64,000 nucleotides of DNA from Malachius bipustulatus (Eukaryota > Arthropoda > Insecta > Coleoptera > Melyridae). The notes under the pieces were generated by a model. It worked only from the letters and a program-made list of their open reading frames with translations, ran no database searches and was not told the DNA's origin. Below, in pieces: positions 1,786 to 62,269 of the stretch. The stretch spans positions 6,448,001 to 6,512,000 of the forward strand of contig OU342635.1 of the NCBI GenBank assembly GCA_910589415.1, read 5' to 3'. The translations under genes were made by a program, and so were the position numbers. How positions within the stretch are numbered: the stretch's first letter is position 1; every line of letters begins with the position of its first letter.

Positions 1786-1895
1786 TATAACCAAGAGATC
1801 GTAGAAAGACTGTGTTAATAGCCGATAAAGAGCGGTGATGCGGTCTAGTTGAGCGGCGCGACGGTACTGATATCGACGGTGCCGGTCCGACCGTA

Positions 1896-2723: not shown

Positions 2724-2744
2724 GATTGATTGATAACGATACGG

Positions 2745-3065
2745 TCACAGCTCTTTATTCAGAAACTTTAAACAGAGATGCCCGCATGTGTAGCCTCCTC
2801 GTTGAAACACGTCATCATTATAGTAGATCTTACAGCCGCGAAAATATCGTTGAAGTTCCCTGGGTGGTTGGAGATCACCATACGAATCAAAGTACTCGAC
2901 TGTATCGCCATGTTTCTCATAAGCCACCCAGTGAGTGCCTGGGCCTGCACAAACATCCAGGTTAACGATGCCCCTCTCCAAGTGATGAGGTTCTGTAGGT
3001 AGTTGATCTCTCATGAAGACTCCGCGGAAGGCTGGGATCCGTAACAGGGCTGCATACCGACGCAA
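2745..3065 (-). CDS. Adenain-like cysteine protease (virion maturation)
   Basis: A 106-aa frame with the adenain pattern: a histidine in GPGTHWVAYEKHG, an acidic partner in EYFDSYGD, and the nucleophile cysteine in GGYTCGHLCLKFL near the C-terminus. FRGVFMRDQLP at the N-terminal side is typical of the Polinton form. Adenains cleave capsid and core precursors during maturation. The listed start is a TTG at 3065. The same frame stays open further upstream into the PLA2 gene without an ATG that I could find, so the true start is unclear: it may be non-AUG, internal, or lost. The stop lies 21 bp from the penton start, so the genes are tightly packed. Confidence 0.8.
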   Translation of the reverse strand: MRRYAALLRIPAFRGVFMRDQLPTEPHHLERGIVNLDVCAGPGTHWVAYEKHGDTVEYFDSYGDLQPPRELQRYFRGCKIYYNDDVFQRGGYTCGHLCLKFLNKEL

Positions 3066-3097
3066 GTCGGCATCGCTCAGAGGCCTGGCGGGCAGTT

Positions 3098-3859
3098 TTA
3101 GTTTTTTGATTGACGTTTTAAATAAAGTCCATAGCCGTTGCGTTGGCGTCGCAGGTACAGGCCCGATCCTTTATTGCCCAAGGCAATATCCTCCATACGC
3201 CTGTTATGTCGATTAACCTCACCCAGCTGTCGAGCTTTGGCTCGTACGTCGGTTATTGTTTTAGTTATCCCCGCAACCCCTCCAGCTAATGCACCGAGGG
3301 CACTCAACCCTGCAAACAGTGGTATCAAGGGAAGTATTCCGCCTATTTTTGGCACAGGTATGACGCGCGGCTTGTTAAACTTTTGCTTGCGAACTATTCT
3401 CCGAGCCGTCTTGAGAGCTGCGGCAGCTGTAGCGAAGACGCTTGAACTACGGGCCTGAGGTCGTTCACGTTTAATCTGACGAACCAGAGTTGAAAATGGT
3501 TTAGAGTCTGTACGACGGTGGCCGGCGCCAAGTTTCCGTTTGATTTTCATGGCGCCTGTAACAAGCAATGCGGTTGCCTTCTCGCCTAGTCCGGAGTCTG
3601 TTGCTTTTACACGATCCCAGGCACCGTCTTCTAACAATTTATCCGCCTTATGTCGCGATGCTAGATCCTTGCTGAGGGCATAGGCAATGTCGTGAGATCT
3701 ACACAGATCGTCAAGCTTGTTTTTGGGGATATCGCCTCTACTTAGACGAGCTTTAAGACGTGTACCAGGTCCACAAAACTTATAACTTGGAATATGTAAT
3801 TCGACCGGAAGATTGTTGATGGCTTTATCGATGAGACCTTGACCTGTGACGTTCAACAT
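3098..3859 (-). CDS. PLA2-domain virion protein (parvovirus VP1-like phospholipase) with hydrophobic tail
   Basis: A 253-aa protein from the ATG at 3859. Residues about 25-60 carry a secreted-phospholipase-A2 core: the calcium loop YKFCGPGT, followed by KLDDLCRSHDIAYA with the catalytic His-Asp pair. This is the layout of the VP1 unique region of parvoviruses and of virion proteins in some adintoviruses, where it opens the endosomal membrane. The C-terminal half is basic, then has a glycine/alanine/leucine-rich hydrophobic segment (around LIPLFAGLSALGALAGGVAG) that could act like the amphipathic or fusogenic tails of adenovirus core proteins. It lies head to head with the ATPase gene. Its 3' end overlaps the open upstream part of the protease frame. 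Confidence 0.8.
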   Translation of the reverse strand: MLNVTGQGLIDKAINNLPVELHIPSYKFCGPGTRLKARLSRGDIPKNKLDDLCRSHDIAYALSKDLASRHKADKLLEDGAWDRVKATDSGLGEKATALLVTGAMKIKRKLGAGHRRTDSKPFSTLVRQIKRERPQARSSSVFATAAAALKTARRIVRKQKFNKPRVIPVPKIGGILPLIPLFAGLSALGALAGGVAGITKTITDVRAKARQLGEVNRHNRRMEDIALGNKGSGLYLRRQRNGYGLYLKRQSKN

Positions 3860-3942
3860 GAAGACTGATTAACGGTCCACATCTATGCGTGTATATATAT
3901 ATATATCAATCACTCTGCAGTGGTAAGTTAGTCATCACAGCC
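3860..3942. promoter_or_regulatory. Divergent promoter region between PLA2 protein and ATPase genes
   Basis: Only 83 bp separate the two divergent start codons. A run of alternating T and A from about 3892 to 3906 could serve as a TATA element for one or both directions. Function is inferred only from position. Confidence 0.35.
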
Positions 3943-4635
3943 ATGCGTATCATTCATCACCCTGAAGCATCTCTGCCAATCCTCAACCTCGATTGTGAAT
4001 CGGTCAAGTCTGCACCACAGCGCCATGGATGTAAACTACCTAATACCGTACGAGCGATAATTTCGGGTCCCAGCGGATGTGGCAAGACAAATACAGCCCT
4101 TAGTCTCATATATCAACCGAACGGGCTCCGTTTCGAAAATGTATACGTATATTCAAAATCCCTGTATCAGCCGAAATACACACAGTTACAACAGGTGTTG
4201 AAACAAGTTGTAGGTGTACAATACTATCCGTTCAGCGATAATGACGAGGTGATTGACCCCTCGAAAGCTCGAGAGAATTCAGTAATGATTTTTGACGATG
4301 TAGCATGCGACAAGCAAAACAATATTAAAGCCTACTTCTCGATGGGTCGACATAAACACATTGACACGATCTATCTCTGTCAGACTTACACGTGCATACC
4401 TAAGCATCTCGTAAGGGATAATGCCAATGTCGTGATACTGTTTAAGCAGGACGAGCTCAACCTGAGGCATTGTTATGACGATCATGTAACTACAGACATG
4501 TCGTTCAATACGTTCAAGGATATGTGCGCCGAATGTTGGAAAGATAACAAGTACGATATGTTGGTCATCGTTAAAGACAATGAACTCAGCAGCGGTCGCT
4601 ATCGGAAAAATTTTGATAAATATATCCAACTGTGA
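3943..4635 (+). CDS. FtsK/HerA-type DNA packaging ATPase (A32-like)
   Basis: A 230-aa protein if read from the ATG at 3943 (MRIIHHPEASLP). An upstream in-frame ATG at 3889 would add an unlikely leader coded by the TA repeat. The Walker A motif is GPSGCGKT and the Walker B is SVMIFDDV; a sensor-like segment TIYLCQTYTCIPK follows. This matches the packaging ATPase of Polintons, adintoviruses and poxvirus A32, which drives DNA into preformed capsids. It heads a plus-strand gene set (ATPase, hypothetical protein, fibre-like protein, integrase) now split by the retroelement. The frame is intact. Confidence 0.88.
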   Translation: MRIIHHPEASLPILNLDCESVKSAPQRHGCKLPNTVRAIISGPSGCGKTNTALSLIYQPNGLRFENVYVYSKSLYQPKYTQLQQVLKQVVGVQYYPFSDNDEVIDPSKARENSVMIFDDVACDKQNNIKAYFSMGRHKHIDTIYLCQTYTCIPKHLVRDNANVVILFKQDELNLRHCYDDHVTTDMSFNTFKDMCAECWKDNKYDMLVIVKDNELSSGRYRKNFDKYIQL

Positions 4636-4660: not shown

Positions 4661-4918
4661 ATGTCGCGCCGAGCTGACGATACAAATACTGCTAAAGATA
4701 TTAAACAGTACATCCAAGCCATTAGACGAAAATATTTGGCTTTGAGATCGGGCAGACAACAGTCGGACGCTGTTATAACTCGCATGCTGAAACCCGTCTC
4801 CACACCACTACAACAAATCGAGAAACATACCAGGCCACAGCCTATGCATGTTATTAAACCCGAGCCTCGTCCACGAACTTTCATCACATCAGCACCCAGA
4901 CAGGCGTGGCCGCACCCC
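4661..4918 (+). pseudogene. 5' part of a Polinton hypothetical gene, split by the retroelement
   Basis: Starts at an ATG 25 bp after the ATPase stop. Eighty-six codons are read before the 5' LTR begins at 4919. The product is basic and proline-rich near the break. The open frame runs a short way into the LTR, but that tail is not part of the gene. The remainder lies at 19951-20769. Allowing for the 4-bp target duplication, the reading frame is kept between the two parts, so the gene was intact before the insertion. Function unknown; position after the ATPase suggests a virion or accessory role. Confidence 0.75.
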
Positions 4919-7127
4919 TGTGACATGTCGAGAACATCGACAGTCCGTATTTTGAAATATCAGGGGAATTAAGAATTCAGCTGGGTAAAAGAAAAATATC
5001 CAGAAGTAAAACGTGATTTACATTTGAACATAGAGCTCAGGTCTTTTCTCTGTTAAGAATATTATAATCTTAATGATGCATGTATAATAGTTAGTTATAG
5101 TCTGGAGGTTGGCCTTGGCAGAAGGCTCGCGTAACTGAAATCCATGAGAAACGGACGACATGAACAAGGGTCCGTCTGTAACAGGCGGCAAAACTAGCGA
5201 ATAGAAAATTCCATTACGTCTAGACACGGGATAATGAATTTAATCAGGTCACGGAGACGATTAAGTAGGTAGACACGAGAGTGAACACACAGAAGTTGGG
5301 TGAAAAGACGCGAGTCGGTAACGTGAAAAGCTTAGGCAGTGACGCTTAGACCTAGGGGGTTGAAAATCGGAAAAAGACGACACCGGGTGTCGGGGAAGAT
5401 GGTAGCATAGAATCCGCGGAGAAGATAGAGAGTTGATTGTATAGGTACTCGCGGAGTAGGTACGCGGAAATAAATAAATCGAGACAATAATAGAGTAAGC
5501 GTTGGTCGCGAGGGAGTGTGATAGGATAGGAACTCGGTTACGTGGGGACTCAACACAGGAGTGAATCGTTGACCGTAAGTGCTCTGGGGGCGCGAGAGAA
5601 TTTATGGAGATATAGGAAAATAATTAAATAATGCGGTACGGGGTACCGGGAGAAATTAATCGCACGGGGTGCGCGGATTAATTAAAATAGGAAGACGAGG
5701 GTAGTGGTACTTAATCGTCGGTCGCAGAATGCTCTGGGAGCGCGGCAAATTTTAAGGGAAAGTTAATCCATAGATAAAGGGAATCGTATAGGCCGGAAAA
5801 ATAGGCGGGTAATAGTGCTAGGAGAGCAAATTAAGAGAGACGAATCGCATAGGCGAGGGAGTGATCGCGCCACGGTGATTAACTATTAGGGTCATAAGGG
5901 TCCGTTAGGTTCGGAAGTGTACAAGTGTTGTTTGTGGACAAATAATGTAAGGATCAATAGTAAACAAGAGCCTGCTGCCAACGGATGTTAAGGTAGAATG
6001 TAGTCTGTAAGATTAACCTTTCATTTATTTTTTTTTATGCCACCTCCAATTTTACGACTCGATGAGTTAAAATTCAGGAATTAGTTCATCAATAATGGAC
6101 AGACGGTGTCAGTCTGATTAAAATATTTTGTAATTAAGAATAACATACCTACTTATGTCTTCGAGTCCTAAAATTGGCATAATTTTAGTTTATTGTTCGT
6201 AAGCCAGCAAAGGCTGGTTCACCTTAAAATTCTATAATGGTCGGTTAACGAATTTATTATTTTTGTGGGTGCTTGGAGCATCTAGTTGTATTTCTAAATT
6301 GGATGGGGGAGTAATAAAAAATATCGGAGTGATCACTATCTAAATTTTTGGTCCATCCCCTTAGAAGGATGACTGGCCAGAAATCGCGACTTTTGGTACG
6401 AAATTCACTCAAGGGAAATTAACCCGCAATGAACGCGACCGAAATGTTTTATTGCTCCAGATACAGGTTTACCTAGGATTAAGTCATTGACCAATAATTA
6501 ATCAATCGATTGACAATCGTGATATTTCTTATTTCAAATAAATGTAGTCGTTTTCCAATTAATTTAAATTTTAATAAATTGTAAATTTATTTGCAATGTG
6601 GCCTTTCTTTTCCACCCATGAAATTTAATTAAAGCATCAAATTAATAATCGAATAACTTGAGTTACAACAAGGCAGAGGAAGTCAGTAGAATTTAATTGA
6701 TTTTTATTATTTTCTAAATTTTATTTGTTCAACAATAAACTTCCCAGTGAGTAAGTGACAAGATCAAGTCAGTGATATAAAGCTACCTACAATAATTATT
6801 AAGATGACCAACAGGGCAGAAGTCCAGATTTCAGGAAACATCAGCGAAAGATAAGTATAGAATAGAGCCATGAGTTACCTCGAATAATCCCCAAAAAGAG
6901 CTGCCACTCATATTAATTGAGATGGTGTAGCCCCTACCTACCATTCTTTTCGAAAGCCTTTTTCTGACAAACCGCTCGGCCAGCCAAAGGACTAATGTGA
7001 CAGGGAGACTTTAACTTCATAATAACGATAGTGAGAGCAAACAACGCAAGTTGTGTGTTCGATCTATCGGAAGAGTGAACGTTAAGGAAAAGAGATCTTC
7101 ACATCATCTCATCCCCCGCCGGTTACA
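4919..7127 (+). repeat. 5' LTR (2,209 bp)
   Basis: Matches 17738-19946 base for base at a constant offset of 12,819, with one substitution noticed at 7097. The ends TGTGAC and GTTACA form an imperfect inverted repeat with canonical TG and CA. No coding frame inside looks genuine; the 69- and 74-codon antisense frames occur in both LTRs and resemble nothing. An AATAAA at 6734-6739 may serve in polyadenylation. Promoter elements could not be fixed by eye. Confidence 0.97.
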
Positions 7128-7129
7128 TC

Positions 7130-7147
7130 TGGTGTCAGGTGTGGGGT
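7130..7147 (+). other. Primer-binding site, tRNA-Leu-like
   Basis: Two bases after the LTR the sequence TGGTGTCAGGTGTGGGGT starts with TGG, the complement of a tRNA CCA end. It resembles the complement of animal tRNA-Leu 3' ends, which begin TGGTGTCAGG. The exact tRNA of this species was not checked. Confidence 0.75.
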
Positions 7148-7790: not shown

Positions 7791-8810
7791 ATGCCTTTAG
7801 AAGATCCTGAAGAACTAGCAGCGGCGGGACCAGCAGGACCTCCCGTCCAAAATTTTAATATAACAACCCAACAGAAAATTAGTTTAGGAGTGCTGGCAGG
7901 CACGTTCGAGTTTTATAACGGAAAAAGTTCTGTGGCAGAATATTTTACAAGGCTAGAAGCCAGAGCAAGATTAGACGATTTGTCTAGGGAAGATACCTTG
8001 AAAATTTTTAAATTTAAACTAACTGGTGAGGCAGCACAATATTTCAAGTCCGAAGAGGAGTTAAATAATTTAACATACGAAGAACTGAAGGAGAAGTTCA
8101 TTAAAAAATTCACACAGGCGCGCATGCCAGGAGAAGCGTTGCTAAAATTGGGGAGATGCTACCAAAGGTCAGATGAGGGAGTAGCGTCATTTAGCACGAG
8201 ACTGAAGTACCTAGGAGCGTGTGCTTTGGCAGAAAGCTTAAAAGGAGCAAATGACAATCAGAAGGCCGGAGTAAAATTGCAATTGGAACAGTTGGTCTTA
8301 AATCAATTTAAGACAGGCCTGAGAAGAGATCTACTGGAAAAAGTAGGAACCACTCTGCTATCAGAACCAGCGTTAACCATTGATAAGGCAGAACAGATAG
8401 TAAAGGTACAGGAAATGACACAGGCCATGCTGAAACAGAGAACTCAGGGAGGCACAGTGAGGGGAATTCGTAACTCTAGAGTAAGGCAACCGGTTAGAGA
8501 AGACAGAGCCAACCAATCTCCCAGAAAATGCTTCGGATGTGATCAGGAAGGGCACTTCAAAAGGGACTGTCCTAGAAACCAGACGCAGACAGACAATAGA
8601 CAAGGGACAAACATAGGTTATGATTATAACCGGAACTACAGACCCTGGAATAATCGAAACGGAGGTCAAGGACGTCCTCGTAATCAAGGTTGTTATCGAT
8701 GTGGGAATGAAGGGCATTGGGCGAAAGACTGCACGATCATCCTAGAAGAGGAGGGAAGGAGTGAGAACACCACCCAAGAAGAAACTCGTCCGAGAGAGAC
8801 GTTAAACTAG
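7791..8810 (+). CDS. gag: Gag polyprotein with two CCHC zinc knuckles
   Basis: A 339-aa protein from the ATG at 7791. The N-terminal two thirds have the helical capsid pattern of Ty3/gypsy Gag, including FEFYNGKSSVAEYFTRLE and a segment near LTYEELKEKFIKKF. Two CX2CX4HX4C knuckles follow: CFGCDQEGHFKRDC from residue 247 and CYRCGNEGHWAKDC from residue 301. These bind genomic RNA. The stop TAG at 8808-8810 follows a GTTAAAC slippery heptamer, and pol is open in the -1 frame from 8765, so Gag-Pol is probably made by frameshifting. The frame is intact. Confidence 0.93.
   Translation: MPLEDPEELAAAGPAGPPVQNFNITTQQKISLGVLAGTFEFYNGKSSVAEYFTRLEARARLDDLSREDTLKIFKFKLTGEAAQYFKSEEELNNLTYEELKEKFIKKFTQARMPGEALLKLGRCYQRSDEGVASFSTRLKYLGACALAESLKGANDNQKAGVKLQLEQLVLNQFKTGLRRDLLEKVGTTLLSEPALTIDKAEQIVKVQEMTQAMLKQRTQGGTVRGIRNSRVRQPVREDRANQSPRKCFGCDQEGHFKRDCPRNQTQTDNRQGTNIGYDYNRNYRPWNNRNGGQGRPRNQGCYRCGNEGHWAKDCTIILEEEGRSENTTQEETRPRETLN
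8801..8810 (+). promoter_or_regulatory. Likely -1 ribosomal frameshift signal at the gag stop
   Basis: In the gag frame the last codons read ACG TTA AAC TAG, so G_TTA_AAC fits the X_XXY_YYZ slippery form as a known variant (GUUAAAC is the slippery site of equine arteritis virus). The pol frame is open from 8765 onward, so a one-base backward slip here leads straight into pol. A possible downstream stem pairs TTCCCC at 8826-8831 with GGGGAA at 8856-8861. Confidence 0.7.
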
Positions 8811-8878
8811 GACGGCGACCTGCCCTTCCCCAACCAGCGAGCCGTAGTGATAGAGGGGGAAATTCGTCCGAAAGAGAC

Positions 8879-8888
8879 GTTAAACTAG
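8879..8888 (+). promoter_or_regulatory. Second copy of the frameshift/stop cassette
   Basis: A 30-bp block ending in GTTAAACTAG at 8781-8810 is repeated at 8859-8888, exactly 78 bp (26 codons) later and in the same frame. The frame between the two TAG codons is open. The second copy would be reached only by ribosomes that read through the first stop. It may simply be a duplication relic. Confidence 0.5.
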
Positions 8889-8908
8889 AACATCAAGGCT
8901 GTATTCCG

Positions 8909-11900
8909 ATGGTAATTAATTATTCAACAGAGGCCGTACCATATTTAGTAATATTAAACGTAGAGGGAATTCCAAGAAAATGCTTATTAGACACCGGAGC
9001 TTCAGCCTCGCTCATTAGAAAAAGCATAGTACCAACCTACGCCAATCGTCGTTCCACTGAAGATCTGGTAAAATTGGTAGGAGTGACAGGACATGCCTTA
9101 CAATTACATGGAGTCATCGATGTGACTATTGATGTTAAGCCTAAGAAAAGAGGAGAAGCAAAAGCGTCCCTTATTATCGTAGACGACAGCTTGTTTCAGG
9201 AAGCAGACATATTACTGGGCAGAGATTTTCTTAGTCAACAGGCTTGCACCTTCCAGTACAATCCAGCAGCAGCGCCAAAATTGCACTTGTGGGGCGTGAC
9301 GTTAGTAGTGTTGACAAACGAAGAAGCAGAACATGAACTCCGAGGAATACGAGTGTATATGGTGAATAGGGAGACCAATAGAAACCGCTCTGAACCAGCC
9401 GACAACAGAAACAGAAGTTACGAGAGTATTTCAGGAAGAAATTACCACAAGGACATCGGCAAGGCCAGGAATGCCGGAAGCAAGGTCACGAAGAGTAGTT
9501 CAGGATATGGACATGGGAGAAATCTAGGTAGCAGACAAAACCGCACATTGCCCCAACCTTTTATTAGATTTGTCTCAGGAGGAATTCAACAAGATGATAC
9601 GAAAGTAAACAACATTACAGAACAAGCAGGAGCAAGGGAATGCCACGATGAGCTGAAGACAACAATAAATGAAAGTTATGGCTCTACGTACGGAGCTGGG
9701 ATGAAGATAATGCTGCAGATGGGATTCCAACCGGGAAAAGGCTTGGGAAGGGACCTGCAAGGAATAACTTCACCTATTGGAACTTCCCTGAGGAAAGGAA
9801 GAGGAGCGATTGGAGCATATGGACCCGAGAAACACGATTCCAGGAATAATAAAGGTTTACAGGAACTGGGTTCCAAGAATAATACAGGATTACAGGAGCA
9901 GGGCTCCAGGAATAATAAAAGTTTACAGGAACAGGGTTCCAGAAATAATACAGGATTACAGGAGCAGGGCTCCCGGAATAATAAAAGTTTACAGGAACTG
10001 AGTTCCAGGAATAATGAAGGTTTACAGGAGCAGGGCTCCAGGAATAATAAAAGTTTACAGGAACTGAGTTCCAGGAATAATGAAGGTTTACAGGAGCAGG
10101 GCTCCAGGAATAATAAAGGTTTACAGGAACTGGGTTCCAGGAATAATGAAGGTTTACAGGAGCAGGGCTCCAGGAATAATAAAGGTTTACAGGAACTGGG
10201 TTCCAGGAATAATGAAGGTTTACAGGAGCAGGGCTCCAGGAATAATAAAGGTTTACAGGAACTGGGTTCCAGGAATAATGAAGGTTTACAGGAGCAGGGC
10301 TCCAGGAATAATAAAGGTTTACAGGAACTGGGTTCCAGAAATAATACAGGATTACAGGAGCAGGGCTCCAGGAATAATAAAGGTTTACAGGAACAGGGTT
10401 CCAGGAATAATGAAGGATTACAGGAGCAGGGCTCCAGGACTAATACAGGATTACAGGACCAAGGTTCCGGAAATAATACAGGAATACAGGAACAAGGTTT
10501 AGAAAACAAAGAAGAGAAAGACGTCTTAACTGAAACCGAGGTCATACTCGAAGTCGAAATGACAATCCAATCCAGAGGACAAACGATCGTACCCGGAAAA
10601 TGTAAGCACACCATTACAGGAAAAGTTCTAGTAATTGAGCCTTTAGAGACGGAACAACAAGGACTTCTAGTAGCCCGAATGGTGGCAGAAACCCAAGATA
10701 CAGTATCTGTAATAGTGATGAACCCCACGGAACGCGAGATAACTTTACAGAAGAATACAAACATTGCAATAGCACATAGTGGAGAAGAAATGACGGAACA
10801 GATTGTAGGAGAGGTTAATGGAGTGACAACGACCGGCAAGGTTGTGGAAAAAAGGAAATTTCAGATGGAACATTTAGACACGCGAGATCAGGAGAAGTTA
10901 GAGAAACTGTTGGATGAATTCAAGGATTTATTTCAAGAGGAAGGGGAAAAACTATCAACAACTAGTCAAGTGAAGCATCACATTTTCCTCGAAGCAGGGG
11001 CTAAACCAATTTGCAAACCGCCCTACAGAATACCGTTCCACAAGAGAGAGAAGGTTCAAAGTGAGTTAGACAAATTAATGGAACAAGGAATAATCCGCCC
11101 TTCCAGCAGCCCATGGTCTGCTCCTGTAGTACTAGTAGTCAAACAGTTACCCGACGGAACGGAGAAGCTGCGGCTATGTATAGACTACAGAGGGTTGAAT
11201 GCAGTCACGCAGAAAGAATATTACCCATTACCAAATATCGCTGACATAACACAAGTTTATACACCAGGGAAGGAGATGTTGTTTACGACAGTGGACATCA
11301 CGCAAGCCTACCACCAGATAGAAATGGAAGAACAAGCCATACCGCTAACAGCGTTCTCTACCTATAACGACCACTATGAATATACGAAAATGCCATTTGG
11401 ACTTTGTAATGCCCCCGCGACGTTCCAACGATTTATGTCAACCATTATGTCTGGATTGATAGGAGACATCTGTATGGTATATCTGGATGACGTCATCATA
11501 TTCAATGCTGGAGGTGTAGACGAGCATTTGAAGCGATTAACAAAGGTTTTTGAAAGACTTCGAGCGGCGAACATCAAGCTCAAGGCAGAAAAATGTGATT
11601 TCTTGAAGAGGCAGGTGAAATATTTAGGACATATACTGTGCCAGACCGGAGTAAAACCTGATCCACAAAAGATCGAAGTCATCAAGGAATTCCCAATTCC
11701 TAGAAACGTGAGAGGTGTACGTTCATTCTTAGGAATCGTGAACTTTTATAGAAGATTTATCCCAAATATAGCTAAGATTGCAGCTCCGTTGACAAACTTA
11801 ACGAAGAAGGGTGTACCATTCAAAGTTACAACCGATGTATTAAATGCCATAGACGAACTAAAGGCGTCGTTAACGTCAGAATCGATACTTATTTTCCCTG

Positions 11901-14614
11901 ACATCACTCAACCATTTGTGCTAGAAGTGGACGCGAGCGGAACTGGAATGGGAGCCATTTTGAGCCAATCACGCAACGGCCATGAGAAACCAATAGCTTA
12001 TGCAAGCAAACAATTTACTAAGGCCCAATTGAATTATATAACTACGGAGAAAGAACTGGCTGCGGTCATGTTTGGAGTAAACCAGTTTAGATGTTTCTTG
12101 TATGGGAAGAAATTTGTTATCATCACAGACCACCGTCCTCTGAAGTGGGTAATGAACATGAAAGATCCAAGTTCGAGATTAACGAGATGGGCTATGCAAT
12201 TAGGTACTTATGAATATGAAATCATTCACCGTCCAGGTCGAATACATGGCAACGCTGATAGTCTGAGCCGAATGCATAACGACGAAGATAATTATCTAAA
12301 TGTCACGTACGAAGACTTTAAAGCATACCAGCAACAACATGATATACCCATCGCGAAAAATGTTGAGATACGACAGGGAAACATCTTCACTACACCGGAG
12401 GGGCATGCCCTTGCAAATTGTGTATCCCAAGATTTCGCCATGACCAAAGGAATAGCACTAGAATTCAGAAGACTTTACGGATCGATCAATGAATTAAAAC
12501 AACAGAACAAGAATTTAGGAGAGATCGCACAACTAAATTTGCCAACAAGAAACATTTATTACTTGATCACCAAGGGACGACTTTATCAAAAACCCACCTA
12601 CGAGCTGTTATGGACAACACTGGTAAATCTAAAGCAGATCTGTAAAGATAACAATGACACGCACCTGGCCATTCCGAAATTAGGTTGCGATGAAGATAAA
12701 TTAGATTGGGGAGAAGTAAAAGATATGGTAAATTTTCTGTTCTTCAATTCGGATGTGCAGGTAAGCATCTATGATCATGAAAGTACATCTGCTAACAGAG
12801 CAACAGTGAACGTAGTCCAACCGGACTTAGCATGGGAACCCATGTGGGATAAGGAAAGGATAAAGACATTACAGGAACGAGATGACTACTGCAGAATAGT
12901 GCTACAACAATATCATAATGAAGATCCAGAGACCTTAGAAAAATACTACATAGACAAGGATGGTATACTATACCTAACACGAAATCAAGATCATGAAGAT
13001 TTGTTACTGTTACCCAAATCAATGAGGAAAGAAGTATTTCAGGAATTCCATGATTCACCATTAGTCGGACACCCTGGACAAGAGAAGACGCTTAGCATCA
13101 TCCAGAGAAGATTTTATTGGTTAACCATGAGAAAGGATGTTATCGAATATTGTAGAAGTTGCGAGAAGTGTCAAGAAAGGAAAACATCCCCACACTTAGG
13201 AAAGGCACCCCTAAAAACTTTCCGCAATTCGTCAAGACCATTCGAAACAATATCCGTTGATATAGTAGGTCCATTGGTAAGCACATATAAAGGAAATCGA
13301 TACATACTCACCGTACTAGATCTGTTCACCAAATATCCGGAAGCAATACCTCTGCCCGATCACAAAGCCGACACAGTGGCGAGAGCGTTTGTAGAGCATG
13401 TAATAACAAGGCACGGAACACCAAGTAAATTACTAAGTGATCTTGGAACAGAATTTACCTCAAAGCTAATGAAAGAAGTTTGCAAGTTATTGGGGATTCG
13501 CCAAATACACACCGCAAGTTATTCACCACAAGAAAATGGCAGTATCGAACGGATGCATCGGGATATGAAGATTATGTTATCACATTATATAGAAAAGAAT
13601 CAACGAGACTGGGATGACTATATACCATACATATTGATGGCCATAAGAGGAAGAGTGCACTCGTCGACAGGACATAGTCCGTTCTATCTCATGCACGGAC
13701 GAGAGCAGAAATTACCCGTGGACGATTTTATAGCATCATCTAGAAGAAGATATAATTACGACGAAAACTTCTCAGCAGAACTTTCAGAAAGATTTAAGAA
13801 TGTGTATCAAACGGTTAGTGAAAGTTTGGAGAAAGCCGGTGTCAAGAGGAAGGTTCAGTACGACAAGAAGACTAAAGAGAAACATTTTAGCGAAGGAGAT
13901 TTTGTATACATCAAAAACATGGCTGCAAAGTTGGGACATTCAAGAAAATTGAGCGCCGCTTGGCTCGGACCCATGGAAATAGTCAAGAAATTAGGAGAGA
14001 AAACATTCGTTGTAAAGCACCAAACCAAACAGAAGGAATACACGGTCATGATTGATAGAATGAAACCGTATGTAGAGAGACTTTCTCCTCAGGACATCCC
14101 CCGACTGAAAGAAATAACCAGACCGGTTACCAAACGTAAAGCCAACATCGATAAGTATGTGGACCACCATGAGGACGATATTGAAGAAGAAGAAGACGAG
14201 AACGAAGAGGAGACAGAAGAAGAAGACGAAGAATTTGACGAAGACGAATATGTCCTGGAACAAGAGACACGACACGGTAGGAAGAATAAGAATTCAAAAA
14301 CTGTCAGAAAAACGAGAAGAGAAGTCGACCTTGATACTTACTCGACAGACGAAAGTAGTTCGGAGAGCAGTGAATATGACTTAAATGACGACTCAGAACC
14401 AAAGGATAAGGATGTACGAAAGGAGGAGCGACGAGTACGAGAATATACCCAGACCTACTTGCCCTACTGCCCGCAAGTTCTGTATTATCCGGCACCTGCC
14501 ATGATAGCTCAACAGCCTGAGGTAAGAGTCAGAGTACCAGCTAGGTATCCTCCTGACAGAATTCCTAGAAGATCTACCAGAGCGAGACGGCCACCGGTCC
14601 GCCTAGATTTGTAA
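8909..14614 (+). CDS. pol: Pol polyprotein: protease, G-patch, repeats, RT, RNase H, macrodomain, integrase
   Basis: A 1,901-aa frame counted from the first ATG; it is open from 8765 and probably entered by -1 frameshift at 8807. Domains in order: aspartic protease with LLDTGAS (Asp28); G-patch (about 257-303); 20 repeats of 11 residues (311-530); reverse transcriptase with the catalytic box YLDD (858-861); RNase H with VDAS (Asp1008), TDHRPLKW and NADSLS; a TARG1-like macrodomain (about 1152-1290); integrase with its His1381/His1388 zinc finger and a DD35E triad Asp1451, Asp1511, Glu1547; a GPY/F-like module near AAWLGPMEIV; and a highly acidic tail (about 1750-1790). The core order is standard for Ty3/gypsy. 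The G-patch, the repeats and the macrodomain are not. No stop or frameshift is seen, so it appears functional. Confidence 0.95.
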   Translation: MVINYSTEAVPYLVILNVEGIPRKCLLDTGASASLIRKSIVPTYANRRSTEDLVKLVGVTGHALQLHGVIDVTIDVKPKKRGEAKASLIIVDDSLFQEADILLGRDFLSQQACTFQYNPAAAPKLHLWGVTLVVLTNEEAEHELRGIRVYMVNRETNRNRSEPADNRNRSYESISGRNYHKDIGKARNAGSKVTKSSSGYGHGRNLGSRQNRTLPQPFIRFVSGGIQQDDTKVNNITEQAGARECHDELKTTINESYGSTYGAGMKIMLQMGFQPGKGLGRDLQGITSPIGTSLRKGRGAIGAYGPEKHDSRNNKGLQELGSKNNTGLQEQGSRNNKSLQEQGSRNNTGLQEQGSRNNKSLQELSSRNNEGLQEQGSRNNKSLQELSSRNNEGLQEQGSRNNKGLQELGSRNNEGLQEQGSRNNKGLQELGSRNNEGLQEQGSRNNKGLQELGSRNNEGLQEQGSRNNKGLQELGSRNNTGLQEQGSRNNKGLQEQGSRNNEGLQEQGSRTNTGLQDQGSGNNTGIQEQGLENKEEKDVLTETEVILEVEMTIQSRGQTIVPGKCKHTITGKVLVIEPLETEQQGLLVARMVAETQDTVSVIVMNPTEREITLQKNTNIAIAHSGEEMTEQIVGEVNGVTTTGKVVEKRKFQMEHLDTRDQEKLEKLLDEFKDLFQEEGEKLSTTSQVKHHIFLEAGAKPICKPPYRIPFHKREKVQSELDKLMEQGIIRPSSSPWSAPVVLVVKQLPDGTEKLRLCIDYRGLNAVTQKEYYPLPNIADITQVYTPGKEMLFTTVDITQAYHQIEMEEQAIPLTAFSTYNDHYEYTKMPFGLCNAPATFQRFMSTIMSGLIGDICMVYLDDVIIFNAGGVDEHLKRLTKVFERLRAANIKLKAEKCDFLKRQVKYLGHILCQTGVKPDPQKIEVIKEFPIPRNVRGVRSFLGIVNFYRRFIPNIAKIAAPLTNLTKKGVPFKVTTDVLNAIDELKASLTSESILIFPDITQPFVLEVDASGTGMGAILSQSRNGHEKPIAYASKQFTKAQLNYITTEKELAAVMFGVNQFRCFLYGKKFVIITDHRPLKWVMNMKDPSSRLTRWAMQLGTYEYEIIHRPGRIHGNADSLSRMHNDEDNYLNVTYEDFKAYQQQHDIPIAKNVEIRQGNIFTTPEGHALANCVSQDFAMTKGIALEFRRLYGSINELKQQNKNLGEIAQLNLPTRNIYYLITKGRLYQKPTYELLWTTLVNLKQICKDNNDTHLAIPKLGCDEDKLDWGEVKDMVNFLFFNSDVQVSIYDHESTSANRATVNVVQPDLAWEPMWDKERIKTLQERDDYCRIVLQQYHNEDPETLEKYYIDKDGILYLTRNQDHEDLLLLPKSMRKEVFQEFHDSPLVGHPGQEKTLSIIQRRFYWLTMRKDVIEYCRSCEKCQERKTSPHLGKAPLKTFRNSSRPFETISVDIVGPLVSTYKGNRYILTVLDLFTKYPEAIPLPDHKADTVARAFVEHVITRHGTPSKLLSDLGTEFTSKLMKEVCKLLGIRQIHTASYSPQENGSIERMHRDMKIMLSHYIEKNQRDWDDYIPYILMAIRGRVHSSTGHSPFYLMHGREQKLPVDDFIASSRRRYNYDENFSAELSERFKNVYQTVSESLEKAGVKRKVQYDKKTKEKHFSEGDFVYIKNMAAKLGHSRKLSAAWLGPMEIVKKLGEKTFVVKHQTKQKEYTVMIDRMKPYVERLSPQDIPRLKEITRPVTKRKANIDKYVDHHEDDIEEEEDENEEETEEEDEEFDEDEYVLEQETRHGRKNKNSKTVRKTRREVDLDTYSTDESSSESSEYDLNDDSEPKDKDVRKEERRVREYTQTYLPYCPQVLYYPAPAMIAQQPEVRVRVPARYPPDRIPRRSTRARRPPVRLDL
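9680..9820 (+). other. G-patch domain in pol, directly after the protease region
   Basis: The segment around GAGMKIMLQMGFQPGKGLG, continuing into a GITSPI block and a KGRGAIG block, fits the G-patch consensus: glycines at regular spacing, an aromatic after MG, a G-x-GLG core, then PI. G-patch domains bind RNA and activate DEAH helicases, and one follows the protease in betaretroviruses. Its place here, between protease and RT, is comparable. RNA binding or a role in reverse transcription is inferred. Confidence 0.85.
9839..10498 (+). repeat. 20 tandem 33-bp units coding for 11-residue repeats inside pol
   Basis: The unit codes for SRNNxGLQEQG or SRNNxGLQELG variants. Alternate units pair into a 66-bp higher-order repeat in the middle, indicating recent unequal crossing-over or slippage. 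Because 33 is divisible by three and the unit has no stops in several frames, long shadow frames appear in other frames on both strands. The repeat is hydrophilic, rich in Gln, Asn and Gly, and probably a flexible linker. Confidence 0.95.
12362..12778 (+). other. TARG1/OARD1-type macrodomain within pol, between RNase H and integrase
   Basis: Residues about 1152-1290 follow the whole TARG1 fold pattern: RQGNIFTTPEGHALANCVSQ, MTKGIALEF, YGSINELKQQ, IYYLITKG, QKPTYE, PKLGCDEDKLDW, and a final VQVSIYD strand. Human TARG1 uses Lys84 and Asp125 to remove ADP-ribose from acidic residues. Here Lys1222 (LITKG) and Asp1263 (GCDEDKLDW) align with them, with the same separation of 41. The glycine-rich loop differs, TKG for the usual GAG. 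Activity against ADP-ribosylated protein or nucleic acid is inferred from these residues. Confidence 0.92.
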
Positions 14615-15518: not shown

Positions 15519-17510
15519 ATGAAGTTCTTCGTGTTGTTAAGTCTCTGTGTAATGAACATTATCAAAGCGGAAGGACTTGTAGCATACGACTGTGAAGACC
15601 AGAGGGTCAACCTCACAATGATTTCCATAAAGGACGTTGCAAAGTGCCCGGAACCTGAATCGGAGTACCTTGTTGAGAAGATACGGATCAAGGTTATACA
15701 GCGGAATGAGATCAGATTACATCACGTAATGACTTGTCTAGTAGAAGTAGTACAGATGAAAATGCATTGTGGACATTGGTCCCACAGTTCATTAGTCAGC
15801 CAGAGCATGTCCAGTTACATCCACCAGTTAGGAGCTGAGGAATGCCGCAACGTCCATCGGTACAGATCGCTTCAATTATTTCACCATCAAATTGGCCAGA
15901 TAACTATGAATGGGAGCACTTCAGCTTCCGTGACGATCGCCGGAGAGGTAGATGCAAATGGAGACTGTAACGGGGTTACCTATCAAGAAGGCGTAAACAC
16001 TTGGCAAGATGTTGTTGTGGTAGCCGCCATAACTTTAAACGTACGAGATTACTTCACCAAGGTTAGGATCAACGACAATGAGATAAGTTTGCTAGGAGGA
16101 GTAACCTGTCCGTTTATGTCAGGTTATTGTTTCGACTCGGTGTTGGGAGAGACAGTCTGGGACGAGGAGAATAAGAATGATTGCCAGCCCAGTTATACGC
16201 TGTTGTACAACGGAGCAGCCAGGAAAGTTACAAGCCGATCCACGAAGGAAGAAACACTAGTTGTCGAGAACGCTGAGAAGATATTTGCGGTAAATCTTGT
16301 CAAAACAAAGTTGGTTTGCGGAGAAGAAGTGTGGCAGACAGAACATCCCAGATTGATGGTACTGATAGGAGATAATGACTTTTCCACCACCTCTAAAATG
16401 AGTTTGATTCCTGAAAACACTGATTTAATGATGTACGTGAATAGTAAATTCATGTACATCGAACAAGCATACAAGAGGGAACTAGAGAAGATTTACTTAG
16501 ACGTAATTCACCGTCGGTGTTTGCTACAGCGGGAAATCTTGAGAAATCGCTTACTGATGGCACCGTTCTCACCTAATACTGTAAGTCAACTACTGCAGAA
16601 TGAACCTGGTTACGTAGGCAGAGTGCTGGGCGAAGTCCTATATATAATGAGATGTATACCCAAGATTGTTACAATCAGGAGAACATCAGAATGTTTTCAC
16701 GAGCTACCAGTGCAGTTAGACGAAAGAAACTTGTTTATGGCCCCAATAACTCACGTATTGCAGGAGACAGCTGAGCAAATAGATTGTAATGCTGCAGCAC
16801 CGCCATTATATGAAATAGACAACGAATGGATAGGACTCACTCCATTCCCCACCGTAAAGAGAGAACCTAAGAAACTACAGGTCCAACCATATCCAACGTT
16901 ACAATTTCAACCCATCCTCCCAGTCGGACAAGCAGGACTCTACACCCAAGAAGAAGTGGGACAGGTGCAGCGCATACTAACATTTGGTATCGAGCGGAAG
17001 GCAGTGGAAAACATAATAACGCGTCGTGTAGCGGGATTAGACACTAGCGGTCAAGGCTATTCGGTCCTTCGTATTTTCAATACGGACGAAATAAAGGAAC
17101 TCGCACATTCATCCATGAAACAAATGTGGGGATGGTTCGTAGATCTAGGAACCTTCATCAGTGGGATCATGGGATTTTACTTCATCTTCAAACTTTGCAA
17201 GTACGCGATCGGTGTGATCATAAACGGTTTACATCTTTACCAAACACTTGGGTGTGGACTACAATTAATTGCTTGTGTGTGGAACTCGCTTGCAATGATA
17301 TTAGTGCAGAGACATTTAAGAAACAAAAATGGGCAGCACACAGTGGCGTCCGAGGTAGGAATCGCTACGGAAGCCGAATTGGAACATACAACCGCCGCGA
17401 AATGTTCTCGCGTAGAAGAAGGTCGGGCCCCGAAACTATATCCGACCTTGACATTGACCCAGCCGGAGTCACACTGGACAGATCATGTTACACCTACCAC
17501 GAGCGAGTGA
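15519..17510 (+). CDS. env: Envelope-like glycoprotein
   Basis: Read from the ATG at 15519 it is 663 aa; an upstream in-frame ATG at 15477 would bury the signal peptide. The N-terminus (MKFFVLLSLCVMNIIKAEG) is a good signal peptide. The ectodomain is cysteine-rich and opens with VAYDCEDQRVNLTMISIKD. A long hydrophobic region near the C-terminus (about 17124-17310) gives one or two membrane spans, followed by a cytoplasmic tail. I see no RxxR cleavage site followed by a fusion peptide as in errantivirus F-type envelopes. The opening resembles glycoproteins of the chuvirus/mononega-like arthropod virus group as I remember them. That class assignment is tentative; envelope identity itself is well supported by position, signal peptide and anchor. 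Confidence 0.82.
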   Translation: MKFFVLLSLCVMNIIKAEGLVAYDCEDQRVNLTMISIKDVAKCPEPESEYLVEKIRIKVIQRNEIRLHHVMTCLVEVVQMKMHCGHWSHSSLVSQSMSSYIHQLGAEECRNVHRYRSLQLFHHQIGQITMNGSTSASVTIAGEVDANGDCNGVTYQEGVNTWQDVVVVAAITLNVRDYFTKVRINDNEISLLGGVTCPFMSGYCFDSVLGETVWDEENKNDCQPSYTLLYNGAARKVTSRSTKEETLVVENAEKIFAVNLVKTKLVCGEEVWQTEHPRLMVLIGDNDFSTTSKMSLIPENTDLMMYVNSKFMYIEQAYKRELEKIYLDVIHRRCLLQREILRNRLLMAPFSPNTVSQLLQNEPGYVGRVLGEVLYIMRCIPKIVTIRRTSECFHELPVQLDERNLFMAPITHVLQETAEQIDCNAAAPPLYEIDNEWIGLTPFPTVKREPKKLQVQPYPTLQFQPILPVGQAGLYTQEEVGQVQRILTFGIERKAVENIITRRVAGLDTSGQGYSVLRIFNTDEIKELAHSSMKQMWGWFVDLGTFISGIMGFYFIFKLCKYAIGVIINGLHLYQTLGCGLQLIACVWNSLAMILVQRHLRNKNGQHTVASEVGIATEAELEHTTAAKCSRVEEGRAPKLYPTLTLTQPESHWTDHVTPTTSE

Positions 17511-17723: not shown

Positions 17724-17734
17724 AAAGGGGGAAG
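17724..17734 (+). other. Polypurine tract
   Basis: AAAGGGGGAAG lies three bases before the 3' LTR, the expected site for plus-strand DNA priming. Confidence 0.85.
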
Positions 17735-17737
17735 CTA

Positions 17738-19946
17738 TGTGACATGTCGAGAACATCGACAGTCCGTATTTTGAAATATCAGGGGAATTAAGAATTCAGC
17801 TGGGTAAAAGAAAAATATCCAGAAGTAAAACGTGATTTACATTTGAACATAGAGCTCAGGTCTTTTCTCTGTTAAGAATATTATAATCTTAATGATGCAT
17901 GTATAATAGTTAGTTATAGTCTGGAGGTTGGCCTTGGCAGAAGGCTCGCGTAACTGAAATCCATGAGAAACGGACGACATGAACAAGGGTCCGTCTGTAA
18001 CAGGCGGCAAAACTAGCGAATAGAAAATTCCATTACGTCTAGACACGGGATAATGAATTTAATCAGGTCACGGAGACGATTAAGTAGGTAGACACGAGAG
18101 TGAACACACAGAAGTTGGGTGAAAAGACGCGAGTCGGTAACGTGAAAAGCTTAGGCAGTGACGCTTAGACCTAGGGGGTTGAAAATCGGAAAAAGACGAC
18201 ACCGGGTGTCGGGGAAGATGGTAGCATAGAATCCGCGGAGAAGATAGAGAGTTGATTGTATAGGTACTCGCGGAGTAGGTACGCGGAAATAAATAAATCG
18301 AGACAATAATAGAGTAAGCGTTGGTCGCGAGGGAGTGTGATAGGATAGGAACTCGGTTACGTGGGGACTCAACACAGGAGTGAATCGTTGACCGTAAGTG
18401 CTCTGGGGGCGCGAGAGAATTTATGGAGATATAGGAAAATAATTAAATAATGCGGTACGGGGTACCGGGAGAAATTAATCGCACGGGGTGCGCGGATTAA
18501 TTAAAATAGGAAGACGAGGGTAGTGGTACTTAATCGTCGGTCGCAGAATGCTCTGGGAGCGCGGCAAATTTTAAGGGAAAGTTAATCCATAGATAAAGGG
18601 AATCGTATAGGCCGGAAAAATAGGCGGGTAATAGTGCTAGGAGAGCAAATTAAGAGAGACGAATCGCATAGGCGAGGGAGTGATCGCGCCACGGTGATTA
18701 ACTATTAGGGTCATAAGGGTCCGTTAGGTTCGGAAGTGTACAAGTGTTGTTTGTGGACAAATAATGTAAGGATCAATAGTAAACAAGAGCCTGCTGCCAA
18801 CGGATGTTAAGGTAGAATGTAGTCTGTAAGATTAACCTTTCATTTATTTTTTTTTATGCCACCTCCAATTTTACGACTCGATGAGTTAAAATTCAGGAAT
18901 TAGTTCATCAATAATGGACAGACGGTGTCAGTCTGATTAAAATATTTTGTAATTAAGAATAACATACCTACTTATGTCTTCGAGTCCTAAAATTGGCATA
19001 ATTTTAGTTTATTGTTCGTAAGCCAGCAAAGGCTGGTTCACCTTAAAATTCTATAATGGTCGGTTAACGAATTTATTATTTTTGTGGGTGCTTGGAGCAT
19101 CTAGTTGTATTTCTAAATTGGATGGGGGAGTAATAAAAAATATCGGAGTGATCACTATCTAAATTTTTGGTCCATCCCCTTAGAAGGATGACTGGCCAGA
19201 AATCGCGACTTTTGGTACGAAATTCACTCAAGGGAAATTAACCCGCAATGAACGCGACCGAAATGTTTTATTGCTCCAGATACAGGTTTACCTAGGATTA
19301 AGTCATTGACCAATAATTAATCAATCGATTGACAATCGTGATATTTCTTATTTCAAATAAATGTAGTCGTTTTCCAATTAATTTAAATTTTAATAAATTG
19401 TAAATTTATTTGCAATGTGGCCTTTCTTTTCCACCCATGAAATTTAATTAAAGCATCAAATTAATAATCGAATAACTTGAGTTACAACAAGGCAGAGGAA
19501 GTCAGTAGAATTTAATTGATTTTTATTATTTTCTAAATTTTATTTGTTCAACAATAAACTTCCCAGTGAGTAAGTGACAAGATCAAGTCAGTGATATAAA
19601 GCTACCTACAATAATTATTAAGATGACCAACAGGGCAGAAGTCCAGATTTCAGGAAACATCAGCGAAAGATAAGTATAGAATAGAGCCATGAGTTACCTC
19701 GAATAATCCCCAAAAAGAGCTGCCACTCATATTAATTGAGATGGTGTAGCCCCTACCTACCATTCTTTTCGAAAGCCTTTTTCTGACAAACCGCTCGGCC
19801 AGCCAAAGGACTAATGTGACAGGGAGACTTTAACTTCATAATAACGATAGTGAGAGCAAACAACGCAAGTTGTGTGTTCGATCTATCGGAAGAGTGAACG
19901 TTAAGGAAAAGAGATTTTCACATCATCTCATCCCCCGCCGGTTACA
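17738..19946 (+). repeat. 3' LTR (2,209 bp)
   Basis: Copy of 4919-7127; the only difference noticed is T at 19916 against C at 7097. It is followed at once by the second CCCC of the target duplication and then by the resumed Polinton gene. Confidence 0.97.
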
Positions 19947-19950
19947 CCCC

Positions 19951-21707: not shown

Positions 21708-22631
21708 ATGATGACGCCCAAGCAGATAATTGTGAACGAACTTTACAAACCAGCTCGGAAAAAGTTTATCCGCCGAGCAACCCTCATAACGGGTTTGGAC
21801 GACCTTTGGCAAATAGATTTGGCCGAAATGCAACCGTATGCAAAAGTGAATAGAGGCATGCGCTACATCCTCGTGGTAATAGACTGTTGTTCCAAGTTCC
21901 TATGGACAAGAGCTGTAAAGAGTAAGACAGGAGCTGACGTGAGCAAGGCACTGTCTAGTATTTTAGCTGAGGGTCGCGTACCTGCATTTATTCAAACTGA
22001 TCGAGGTCGCGAATTTTATAATGGAAAATTTAAGGTCTTGATGGAAGACTATTCAATCACCCACTACAGCACCTATAGCACCATGAAGGCAGCAATGGCC
22101 GAGCGAGTAATCAGGACACTCAAGGATCGACTCTATAAGGCCCTCAATTTGCAAGGTACATACCGATGGCTCAAGTTACTGCCAGTTGTTACAGCAGATT
22201 ATAACCAAACAGTGCATAGCACAACCAGGAAGAAACCTGCAGAAGTCAACGCTACCAACGTGGATGAGGTTTTGGAAGCCATTGCGCGTAAACGACCGAC
22301 AAACAGTGTGATTAAGTATTCTAAGGGCGACATTGTACGCATAAGTAAAGCCAAAATGTTACTGGAAAGAAAATTCACCCCAAGATGGAGTACAGAATTG
22401 TTTCGCGTGAGAACCGTTAGAGACACAACACGCCCCGTTACTTACATGCTTGAAGATTTAAATGGAGCGCCCATACAGGGCTGCTTTTATTCCCAAGAGC
22501 TGCAGCGGACCTCAGTTCCTGATACTTACCTTGTAAGCAAAATTTTGCAAAGGAAAGGTTCGCGCGTTTTAGTACAATGGCTAGGCATGGAAGATAAAAC
22601 ATGGATTAACGTCTCCGATCTGATATCTTAA
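21708..22631 (+). CDS. Polinton retroviral-type integrase with C-terminal chromodomain
   Basis: A 307-aa protein starting 7 bp after the fibre-like gene. The catalytic core shows DLWQIDLAEMQ (first Asp), IQTDRGREF (second Asp) and AAMAERVIRTLK (Glu), the DDE pattern of retroviral-type integrases. The C-terminus (YLVSKILQRKGSRVLVQWLG, then a TWINVSDL block) is a chromodomain, which can direct integration to marked chromatin. The N-terminal zinc finger of retroviral integrases is not visible, as in other short Polinton integrases. The frame is intact. Polinton integrase inserts the element and makes 6-bp target duplications in known cases. Confidence 0.92.
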   Translation: MMTPKQIIVNELYKPARKKFIRRATLITGLDDLWQIDLAEMQPYAKVNRGMRYILVVIDCCSKFLWTRAVKSKTGADVSKALSSILAEGRVPAFIQTDRGREFYNGKFKVLMEDYSITHYSTYSTMKAAMAERVIRTLKDRLYKALNLQGTYRWLKLLPVVTADYNQTVHSTTRKKPAEVNATNVDEVLEAIARKRPTNSVIKYSKGDIVRISKAKMLLERKFTPRWSTELFRVRTVRDTTRPVTYMLEDLNGAPIQGCFYSQELQRTSVPDTYLVSKILQRKGSRVLVQWLGMEDKTWINVSDLIS

Positions 22632-62260: not shown

Positions 62261-62269
62261 ACAAAACAT

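What the first reader, a model, noticed from the sequence alone, without database searches (positions are those of the whole stretch)
12362..12778. A TARG1-type ADP-ribosyl hydrolase macrodomain built into a Ty3/gypsy Pol polyprotein
Seen: between RNase H and the integrase zinc finger, about 140 residues follow the complete TARG1/OARD1 pattern. Lys1222 and Asp1263 sit at the TARG1 catalytic positions with the same 41-residue separation as human Lys84 and Asp125. Known: viral macrodomains in RNA viruses remove ADP-ribose and oppose host PARP defences; I do not recall one reported in a gypsy pol. Inference: the element captured a host ADP-ribosyl hydrolase gene and uses it, perhaps against PARP or DNA ADP-ribosylation during reverse transcription or integration. 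The domain is intact in a young, open element, suggesting selection.
Basis: partly seen in the sequence, partly recalled or inferred. Interest (0 to 1): 0.96.

Follow-up and report, generated by a model that had tools for sequence, protein, structure and literature searches.

The report
TARG1-like macrodomain in retroelement polymerase
A young, intact jumping element related to retroviruses carries, inside its polymerase polyprotein, a domain descended from an animal enzyme (TARG1) that removes ADP-ribose marks, but the loop that should grip ADP-ribose has been rewritten, so it may no longer do the ancestral job.

Summary
The domain is real. Pol residues 1152-1290 (12362-12778) align without a gap to human TARG1 (54 of 133 identical, E 3.4e-30); a profile of 51 relatives without the element finds only this place in the window (E 3.6e-51). 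It lies between RNase H and the integrase zinc finger of a complete Ty3/gypsy-type element (2209-bp LTRs with one mismatch, 4-bp target repeat, open gag, pol and env). Gly123 and Leu124, invariant in 120 of 120 OARD1 proteins, are Asp and Glu. G123E abolishes ADP-ribose binding and catalysis in human TARG1 but spares RNA binding. The change predates insertion. My reading: a TARG1 eraser captured by the element lineage, kept folded, with a remodelled pocket; ancestral hydrolysis is probably lost or weak. Six paper searches listed no macrodomain in an LTR retroelement. One copy only; host unknown; related copies and arthropod OARD1 were not seen.

The parts
4915..4918 (.). Target-site duplication CCCC, left copy
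   Evidence: matching copy at 19947-19950
4919..7127 (+). 5' LTR (2209 bp, TGTGACA...GGTTACA)
   Evidence: one mismatch to the 3' LTR in 2209
7130..7146 (+). Candidate primer-binding site beginning TGG, 2 nt after the LTR
   Evidence: sequence; PBS reading from general knowledge, no tRNA tested
7791..8810 (+). gag ORF: Retrotrans_gag plus CCHC zinc knuckles
8801..8807 (+). GTTAAAC in the phase for a -1 frameshift, directly before the gag stop; pol frame is open from 8765
   Evidence: use as a slip site is recalled from arteriviruses, not tested
8909..14614 (+). pol ORF, 1901 aa, open
8954..9250 (+). Retroviral-type aspartyl protease
   Evidence: PF00077 3.1e-07
9686..9817 (+). G-patch domain
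   Evidence: PF01585 1.2e-12
9831..10499 (+). About 20 copies of a 33-nt (11-aa) in-frame repeat
11159..11638 (+). Reverse transcriptase
   Evidence: PF00078 9.7e-32; Ty3 RT 4ol8 E 8.4e-83
11900..12211 (+). RNase H
   Evidence: PF17917 7.8e-38
12362..12778 (+). TARG1/OARD1-derived macrodomain, Pol residues 1152-1290
12572..12574 (+). Lys1222 codon, equals catalytic Lys84 of human TARG1
12689..12694 (+). Asp1261-Glu1262 codons GAT GAA, where TARG1 has Gly123-Leu124 of the phosphate loop
12695..12697 (+). Asp1263 codon, equals Asp125 of human TARG1
13013..13189 (+). Integrase H2C2 zinc-binding domain
   Evidence: PF17921 2e-25
13232..13528 (+). Integrase core
   Evidence: PF00665 2.1e-15; Ty3 7q5b E 2.1e-27
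15519..17510 (+). env ORF from ATG 15519: Monjiviricetes-type fusion glycoprotein
   Evidence: PF24664 1.7e-180 over profile 5-650 of 653; ATG
17724..17734 (+). Candidate polypurine tract AAAGGGGGAAG
   Evidence: sequence; reading from general knowledge
17738..19946 (+). 3' LTR
19947..19950 (.). Target-site duplication CCCC, right copy

Best explanation
An ancestor of this Ty3/gypsy-type, env-bearing element captured an animal TARG1 (OARD1) coding sequence and fixed it as a folded domain between RNase H and integrase (shown: homology, position, predicted fold; inferred: the capture). It was probably taken as an eraser of ADP-ribose: in Drosophila, loss of PARP-1 raises some gypsy-superfamily elements, springer most, and in mammals SIRT6-made mono-ADP-ribose on KAP1 silences L1 (both published), so an eraser delivered with reverse transcriptase and integrase could help the element (inferred). 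Selection kept the fold (inferred from retention of near-invariant positions). Since then the pocket has been remodelled: the distal-ribose/Lys-Asp centre is kept, but the pyrophosphate GxG and half of the adenosine contacts are changed (shown). I therefore think the present domain has lost or sharply weakened ADP-ribose binding and ancestral hydrolysis (inferred, about 60%) and serves as a non-catalytic macrodomain module of Pol, a binding or spacer domain before integrase (inferred, weak).
For: Homology, position, fold. Animal-type origin: groups with Mytilus OARD1 and viral contig L001 inside a cluster of OARD1 rows, support 94/94, branch 3.28. Fixed before insertion: one LTR mismatch implies 0.09 mutations in the domain since insertion; three or more changes in codons 1261-1262 since then have P about 4e-10. 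Composition like the rest of pol (A3 0.353 versus 0.371 +/- 0.038; GC3 0.417 versus 0.418), as expected after long residence. Selection on the fold: 39 of 49 near-invariant columns kept but only 14 of 90 others match consensus. Pocket remodelled. G123E abolishes ADPr binding and catalysis in human TARG1 (PMC5928194, passages); the equivalent DarG G119E has a marked inhibitory effect (PMC5179494, passages). Losing activity is a known fate of viral macrodomains, including insect-specific alphaviruses (PMC10221186, passages).
Against: Lys84, Asp125, Thr83, Ser35 and Cys33 equivalents are all kept, more than a long-dead enzyme would need. Published loss is for Gly to Glu, not Gly to Asp. D20N occurs in 5 of 120 OARD1 and 9 of 17 phage, plasmid and viral-contig homologues, A42K in 7 of 120 and 7 of 17, so these two are tolerated. 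A nucleic-acid-binding role is weakened by charge: net -2 against a mean of +4 (range -1 to 11) in 118 OARD1 rows. Only one copy was seen, and no arthropod is named in the OARD1 listing, so the host gene might already carry some of these changes. The model is slightly less sure (block mean pLDDT 88) around the loop.
Confidence: 0.5

Rival explanations
1. Active eraser: the domain still hydrolyses ADP-ribose from proteins or nucleic-acid ends and protects the reverse-transcription or integration complex, or the new provirus, from PARP marks.
For: Lys1222/Asp1263 dyad and Thr83, Ser35, Cys33, Gly43, Ile44 equivalents kept; confident predicted fold. PARP-1 loss in Drosophila: of eight mobile elements significantly changed, five rose and three fell; three of the eight are gypsy-superfamily, springer rising most; ten more rose without significance, nine of them gypsy-superfamily (PMC7712786, passages).
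Against: G123D and L124E at positions invariant in 120 of 120 OARD1; position 123 is Gly in 15 of 17 phage, plasmid and viral-contig homologues, and the single Asp row (L057) also lost the catalytic Lys and Asp; published G123E is dead. The authors of PMC7712786 say that loss of the repressors Lola and Mod(mdg4) could explain the rise.
Confidence: 0.28
2. Passenger: a captured domain with no present function, carried because the insertion point tolerates it and slowly decaying in the element lineage.
For: Pocket positions eroded; 10 of 49 near-invariant columns lost against 2 of 49 in Mytilus OARD1; long branch.
Against: No stop or frameshift in 139 codons; 39 of 49 near-invariant columns kept while other columns are much changed (14 of 90); mean pLDDT 93.8.
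Confidence: 0.17
3. Not a captured domain but an assembly or annotation artefact: a host OARD1 exon or pseudogene next to a retroelement.
For: None found.
Against: One continuous ORF from protease to integrase with the domain inside it; base composition like the flanks; bounded by matched LTRs and a 4-bp target repeat.
Confidence: 0.02

Closest known systems
Animal TARG1/OARD1/C6orf130 (ALC1-like macrodomain class)
   Same: Gapless alignment over 133 residues, 41% identity; Lys84/Asp125 dyad; predicted six strands and four helices.
   Different: Inside a retroelement Pol instead of a free protein; the GCGLD phosphate loop reads GCDED; fails the published TARG1 pattern.
DarG antitoxin macrodomain (DNA ADP-ribosyl glycohydrolase)
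   Same: NCBIfam DarG model matches the domain (E 2.3e-13, 50 bits, cut-off 250); Asn at 20 and 32 and Lys at 42 as in DarG rows L047 and L049.
   Different: Keeps Asp125, which DarG lacks (rows); groups with OARD1, not with the DarG rows; no DarT-like domain among the Pfam hits of the ORFs tested.
Macrodomains of RNA viruses (alphavirus nsP3, coronavirus nsp3)
   Same: A macrodomain encoded by a genomic parasite; loss of catalysis also occurs there (PMC10221186, passages).
   Different: Different macrodomain class (recalled); here in a reverse-transcribing element.
Orchid Ty3/gypsy AlkB (m6A demethylase) elements
   Same: A Ty3/gypsy element that acquired a host-type eraser of a chemical mark (PMC9289625, abstract and one section).
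   Different: Additional ORF, an RNA demethylase shown active in vitro; in plants.
Anakin, a BEL/Pao element with a chuvirus glycoprotein
   Same: LTR element with an env of Jingchuvirales type (PMC10084718, abstract and passages; PMC12440569, passages).
   Different: BEL/Pao, not Ty3/gypsy; PMC10084718 found no clear capture by Gypsy.

Membership tests
TARG1/OARD1 macrodomain | Sequence homology over the whole domain | tested here: met
   E 3.4e-30 to 4j5q over 133 residues; 170 bits without the element in the profile
TARG1/OARD1 macrodomain | Catalytic Lys84 and Asp125 | tested here: met
   Lys1222, Asp1263
TARG1/OARD1 macrodomain | Published pattern TKx(30,35)Px[IL]GxGxD (PMC6397177, passages) | tested here: not met
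   GxG is GxD; the pattern is met in 117 of 120 OARD1, missed by P0046, P0078, P0094. So: a TARG1-derived domain, not a canonical TARG1
TARG1/OARD1 macrodomain | Adenosine-contact residues D20 L21 F22 I44 L47 P118 Y150 L152 | tested here: inconclusive
   4 of 8 kept (F22, I44, P118, Y150); D20N, L21I, L47E, L152H
TARG1/OARD1 macrodomain | ADP-ribosyl hydrolase activity | not testable with these tools
   Needs an assay
TARG1/OARD1 macrodomain | Macrodomain fold | tested here: inconclusive
DarG | NCBIfam equivalog cut-off | tested here: not met
   50 bits against 250
Ty3/gypsy (Metaviridae) | Order PR-RT-RH-IN and RT nearest Ty3 | tested here: met
   4ol8 E 8.4e-83; 7q5b E 2.1e-27; nearest among solved structures only
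Ty3/gypsy (Metaviridae) | LTRs TG..CA with short target duplication | tested here: met
   TGT..ACA, CCCC
Ty3/gypsy (Metaviridae) | Placement in an RT tree with named clades | not tested
   No related retroelement sequences were obtained
Errantivirus | Baculovirus-derived env (PMC12440569, passages) | tested here: not met
   env is PF24664 Monjiviricetes_fusion, the only Pfam family listed at E up to 1

The most novel reading that the evidence does not exclude
The domain is still an enzyme with a changed substrate: it keeps the TARG1 lysine-aspartate chemistry on a ribose but has given up the ADP grip (Gly-Leu to Asp-Glu beside the catalytic Asp, adenosine contacts changed), so it acts on modified or damaged ribose ends of nucleic acid met during reverse transcription or integration. 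It would be a first enzyme of this kind in an LTR retroelement Pol.
Probability: 0.1. Interest if true: 0.92.

Novelty: new variant of a known kind. Interest (0 to 1): 0.68.

Why it matters
Macrodomains are known tools of RNA viruses against PARP; six searches of a partial full-text library listed none in an LTR retroelement. It would mean that ADP-ribosylation is, or was, part of the conflict between animals and their retroelements, which makes published hints (PARP-1 and SIRT6 acting on retrotransposons) directly testable. The rewritten loop makes a sharp question: eraser, pseudo-enzyme or new chemistry.

Tried and rejected
Close relatives of the domain in long proteins or alone: none scored with single queries (119 and 5 candidates), but the same database gave 1179 proteins once human TARG1 was added, so those two negatives say little. 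Related retroelements in IMG/VR by RT, env, integrase and domain, single queries that find close relatives only: none; the two-sequence domain alignment gave two TARG1-like loci on viral contigs. Idea of DarG-like convergence (Asn20, Asn32, Lys42): dropped, since Lys42 also occurs in Mytilus and Acropora OARD1 and Asn20 in 5 of 120 OARD1. Nucleic-acid-binding pseudo-enzyme as a firm claim: weakened by net charge -2. Bacterial set of 41 loci as evidence on Gly123: not used, because all 41 contain the search pattern with GCGLD; seven of them were used in the tree. Errantivirus: rejected. Post-insertion decay as the source of Asp-Glu: rejected. Selection by dN/dS: not possible with one copy. Second OARD1-like stretch in the window: none, next best E 1.6. 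A promoter/terminator scan made for bacteria was not used.
Full report
What is there. The window holds a complete LTR element of about 15 kb: 5' LTR 4919-7127 and 3' LTR 17738-19946, each 2209 bp with one mismatch, ends TGT...ACA, flanked by the 4-bp repeat CCCC. Between them lie open gag (7791-8810), pol (8909-14614, 1901 aa) and env (ATG 15519 to 17510). Pol carries protease, G-patch, an 11-aa repeat array, reverse transcriptase, RNase H, the domain in question, and integrase. Among solved structures RT is nearest Ty3 (4ol8, E 8.4e-83) and so is integrase (7q5b, E 2.1e-27), so 'Ty3/gypsy type' holds; no tree with named clades could be made. The element sits in a sequence that looks like a Maverick/Polinton (my reading, from recall, of double-jelly-roll, phospholipase-A2-like and A32-like ORFs on the left and an integrase ORF on the right). 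Joining the two flanks without one repeat gives a 415-codon open frame across the site on the + strand and a 304-codon one on the - strand, so the insertion looks clean.

The domain. Pol residues 1156-1288 align to human TARG1 residues 18-150 without a gap, 54 of 133 identical, E 3.4e-30. A profile of 51 relatives without the element finds the domain with 170 bits, E 3.6e-51, among 1435 open pieces of the window; the next match has E 1.6. The general Pfam Macro model gives 16.8 bits, under its cut-off of 22, with a similar score for an unrelated family (AbiEi_4, 16.6 bits); the DarG model gives 50 bits, far under its equivalog cut-off. AlphaFold2, run on an alignment of 52 rows, gives mean pLDDT 93.8 and pTM 0.89, with six strands and four helices; the two blocks around the phosphate loop average 88. 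The DarG paper describes six strands and four helices plus a 3-10 element for its macrodomain (PMC5179494, passages).

The active site. But PMC6397177 (passages) names the site: D20, L21, F22, I44, L47, P118, Y150, L152 for adenosine; a GxG loop for the pyrophosphate; H32 and C33 main chain, S35, T83, D125 and K84 at the distal ribose. The element keeps 4 of the 8 adenosine residues, 1 of the 2 glycines, and 5 of the 6 at the distal ribose. Its loop reads GCDED where OARD1 has GCGLD. Gly123 and Leu124 are the same in 120 of 120 OARD1 proteins, the 120 listed of 1179 found. The set was found by words shared with the two query sequences (element domain and human TARG1), so it may under-sample deviants. 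In 17 phage, plasmid and viral-contig homologues (15 of 56 records found by similarity to the element's domain, picked by me to spread over organisms, plus L001 and L002), position 123 is Gly in 15, Asp in 1 and Ser in 1, and position 124 is never Glu; the Asp row (L057) has also lost the Lys and Asp of the dyad. Position 41 is Gly in 17 of 17 and Thr in the element; in OARD1 it is Gly in 105, Ser in 11, Glu in 3 and Lys in 1 of 120. The 41 bacterial loci are left out of these counts because all of them contain the search pattern with GCGLD.

Meaning of the loop. [quoted passage not shown] In DarG the equivalent G119E has a marked inhibitory effect. Gly to Asp is not described in the passages I saw; a charged side chain facing the phosphates should hurt, but this is inference. 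So I think canonical binding and hydrolysis are lost or weak (about 60%), and I do not file the domain as a canonical TARG1.

Age and selection. One LTR mismatch in 2209 gives about 0.09 expected changes in the domain since insertion; the Asp-Glu pair needs at least three nucleotide changes in two codons (by the genetic code), for which P is about 4e-10, or 7e-8 at the upper 95% rate. Gene conversion between the LTRs would make the element look younger than it is; this was not tested. The loop was therefore most likely rewritten in the element lineage or in its source, not in this copy. Base composition of the domain is like the rest of pol. The tree of 45 rows puts the element next to Mytilus OARD1 and viral contig L001 inside the OARD1 cluster (support 94/94, just under treekit's star), on a long branch of 3.28; treekit warned that the element and L001 may be joined by long branches. 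At this divergence 39 of 49 near-invariant columns are kept, against 14 of 90 others, which points to selection on the fold over much of the history. For Mytilus OARD1 the same counts are 47 of 49 and 44 of 90. These counts include the host part of the history, so they do not prove selection after capture.

How it could work. In Drosophila lacking PARP-1, eight mobile elements changed significantly, five up and three down; three of the eight are gypsy-superfamily LTR elements, and springer rose most; ten more rose without significance, nine of them gypsy-superfamily. The authors note that loss of the repressors Lola and Mod(mdg4) could explain it (PMC7712786, passages). SIRT6 mono-ADP-ribosylates KAP1 to silence L1 (PMC4695847, passages). 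An eraser fused to RT and integrase would arrive at the template and the integration site. That is a possible reason for the capture; it does not show present activity. Loss of macrodomain activity recurs in viruses, including insect-specific alphaviruses (PMC10221186, passages), so a captured eraser turned pseudo-enzyme has precedent.

Novelty. Six paper searches list no report of a macrodomain in an LTR retroelement. I saw the listings (2 of 2, 0 of 0, 20 of 27, 20 of 23, 2 of 2 and 12 of 122 papers) and passages of some of those papers; subscription papers are mostly not held. Addition of extra domains to Ty3/gypsy elements is known: G-patch and others in plants, orchid AlkB shown active in vitro (PMC9289625, abstract and one section), chromodomain and viral env (PMC12440569, passages). 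So: new variant of a known kind.

Limits. One copy, host unknown, no related elements, no arthropod OARD1, no assay. The search of the window's own genome did not complete (13 requests).

Noticed in passing
15519-17510: env matches PF24664 Monjiviricetes fusion glycoprotein almost end to end (E 1.7e-180) in an intact Ty3/gypsy-type element; PMC10084718 (abstract and passages) found no clear capture of Jingchuvirales glycoproteins by Gypsy elements.
   Followed up: partly
8765-8909: gag and pol overlap in the -1 frame, with GTTAAAC in slip phase right before the gag stop (8801) and a second GTTAAAC at 8879.
   Followed up: partly
9831-10499: About 20 tandem copies of an 11-aa repeat (LQEQGSRNNKG type) in pol between G-patch and RT.
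   Followed up: no
571-4632 and 21708-22628: Maverick/Polinton-like ORFs (double jelly roll, PLA2-like, A32-like ATPase, integrase) on both sides of the element; joined flanks restore long open frames across the site.
   Followed up: partly
L001 512-1033: A 173-aa TARG1-like protein with an intact GCGLD loop on a 78.8-kb IMG/VR contig; nearest row to the element in the tree, possibly by long branches.
   Followed up: no
L057 301-750: Acinetobacter phage nACB2 macrodomain homologue lacking the catalytic Lys and Asp, with Asp in place of the phosphate-loop Gly: another apparently disarmed TARG1/DarG relative.
   Followed up: no
24367-26250, 38770-39766, 60818-62261: Local direct and inverted repeat clusters downstream of the element.
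   Followed up: no
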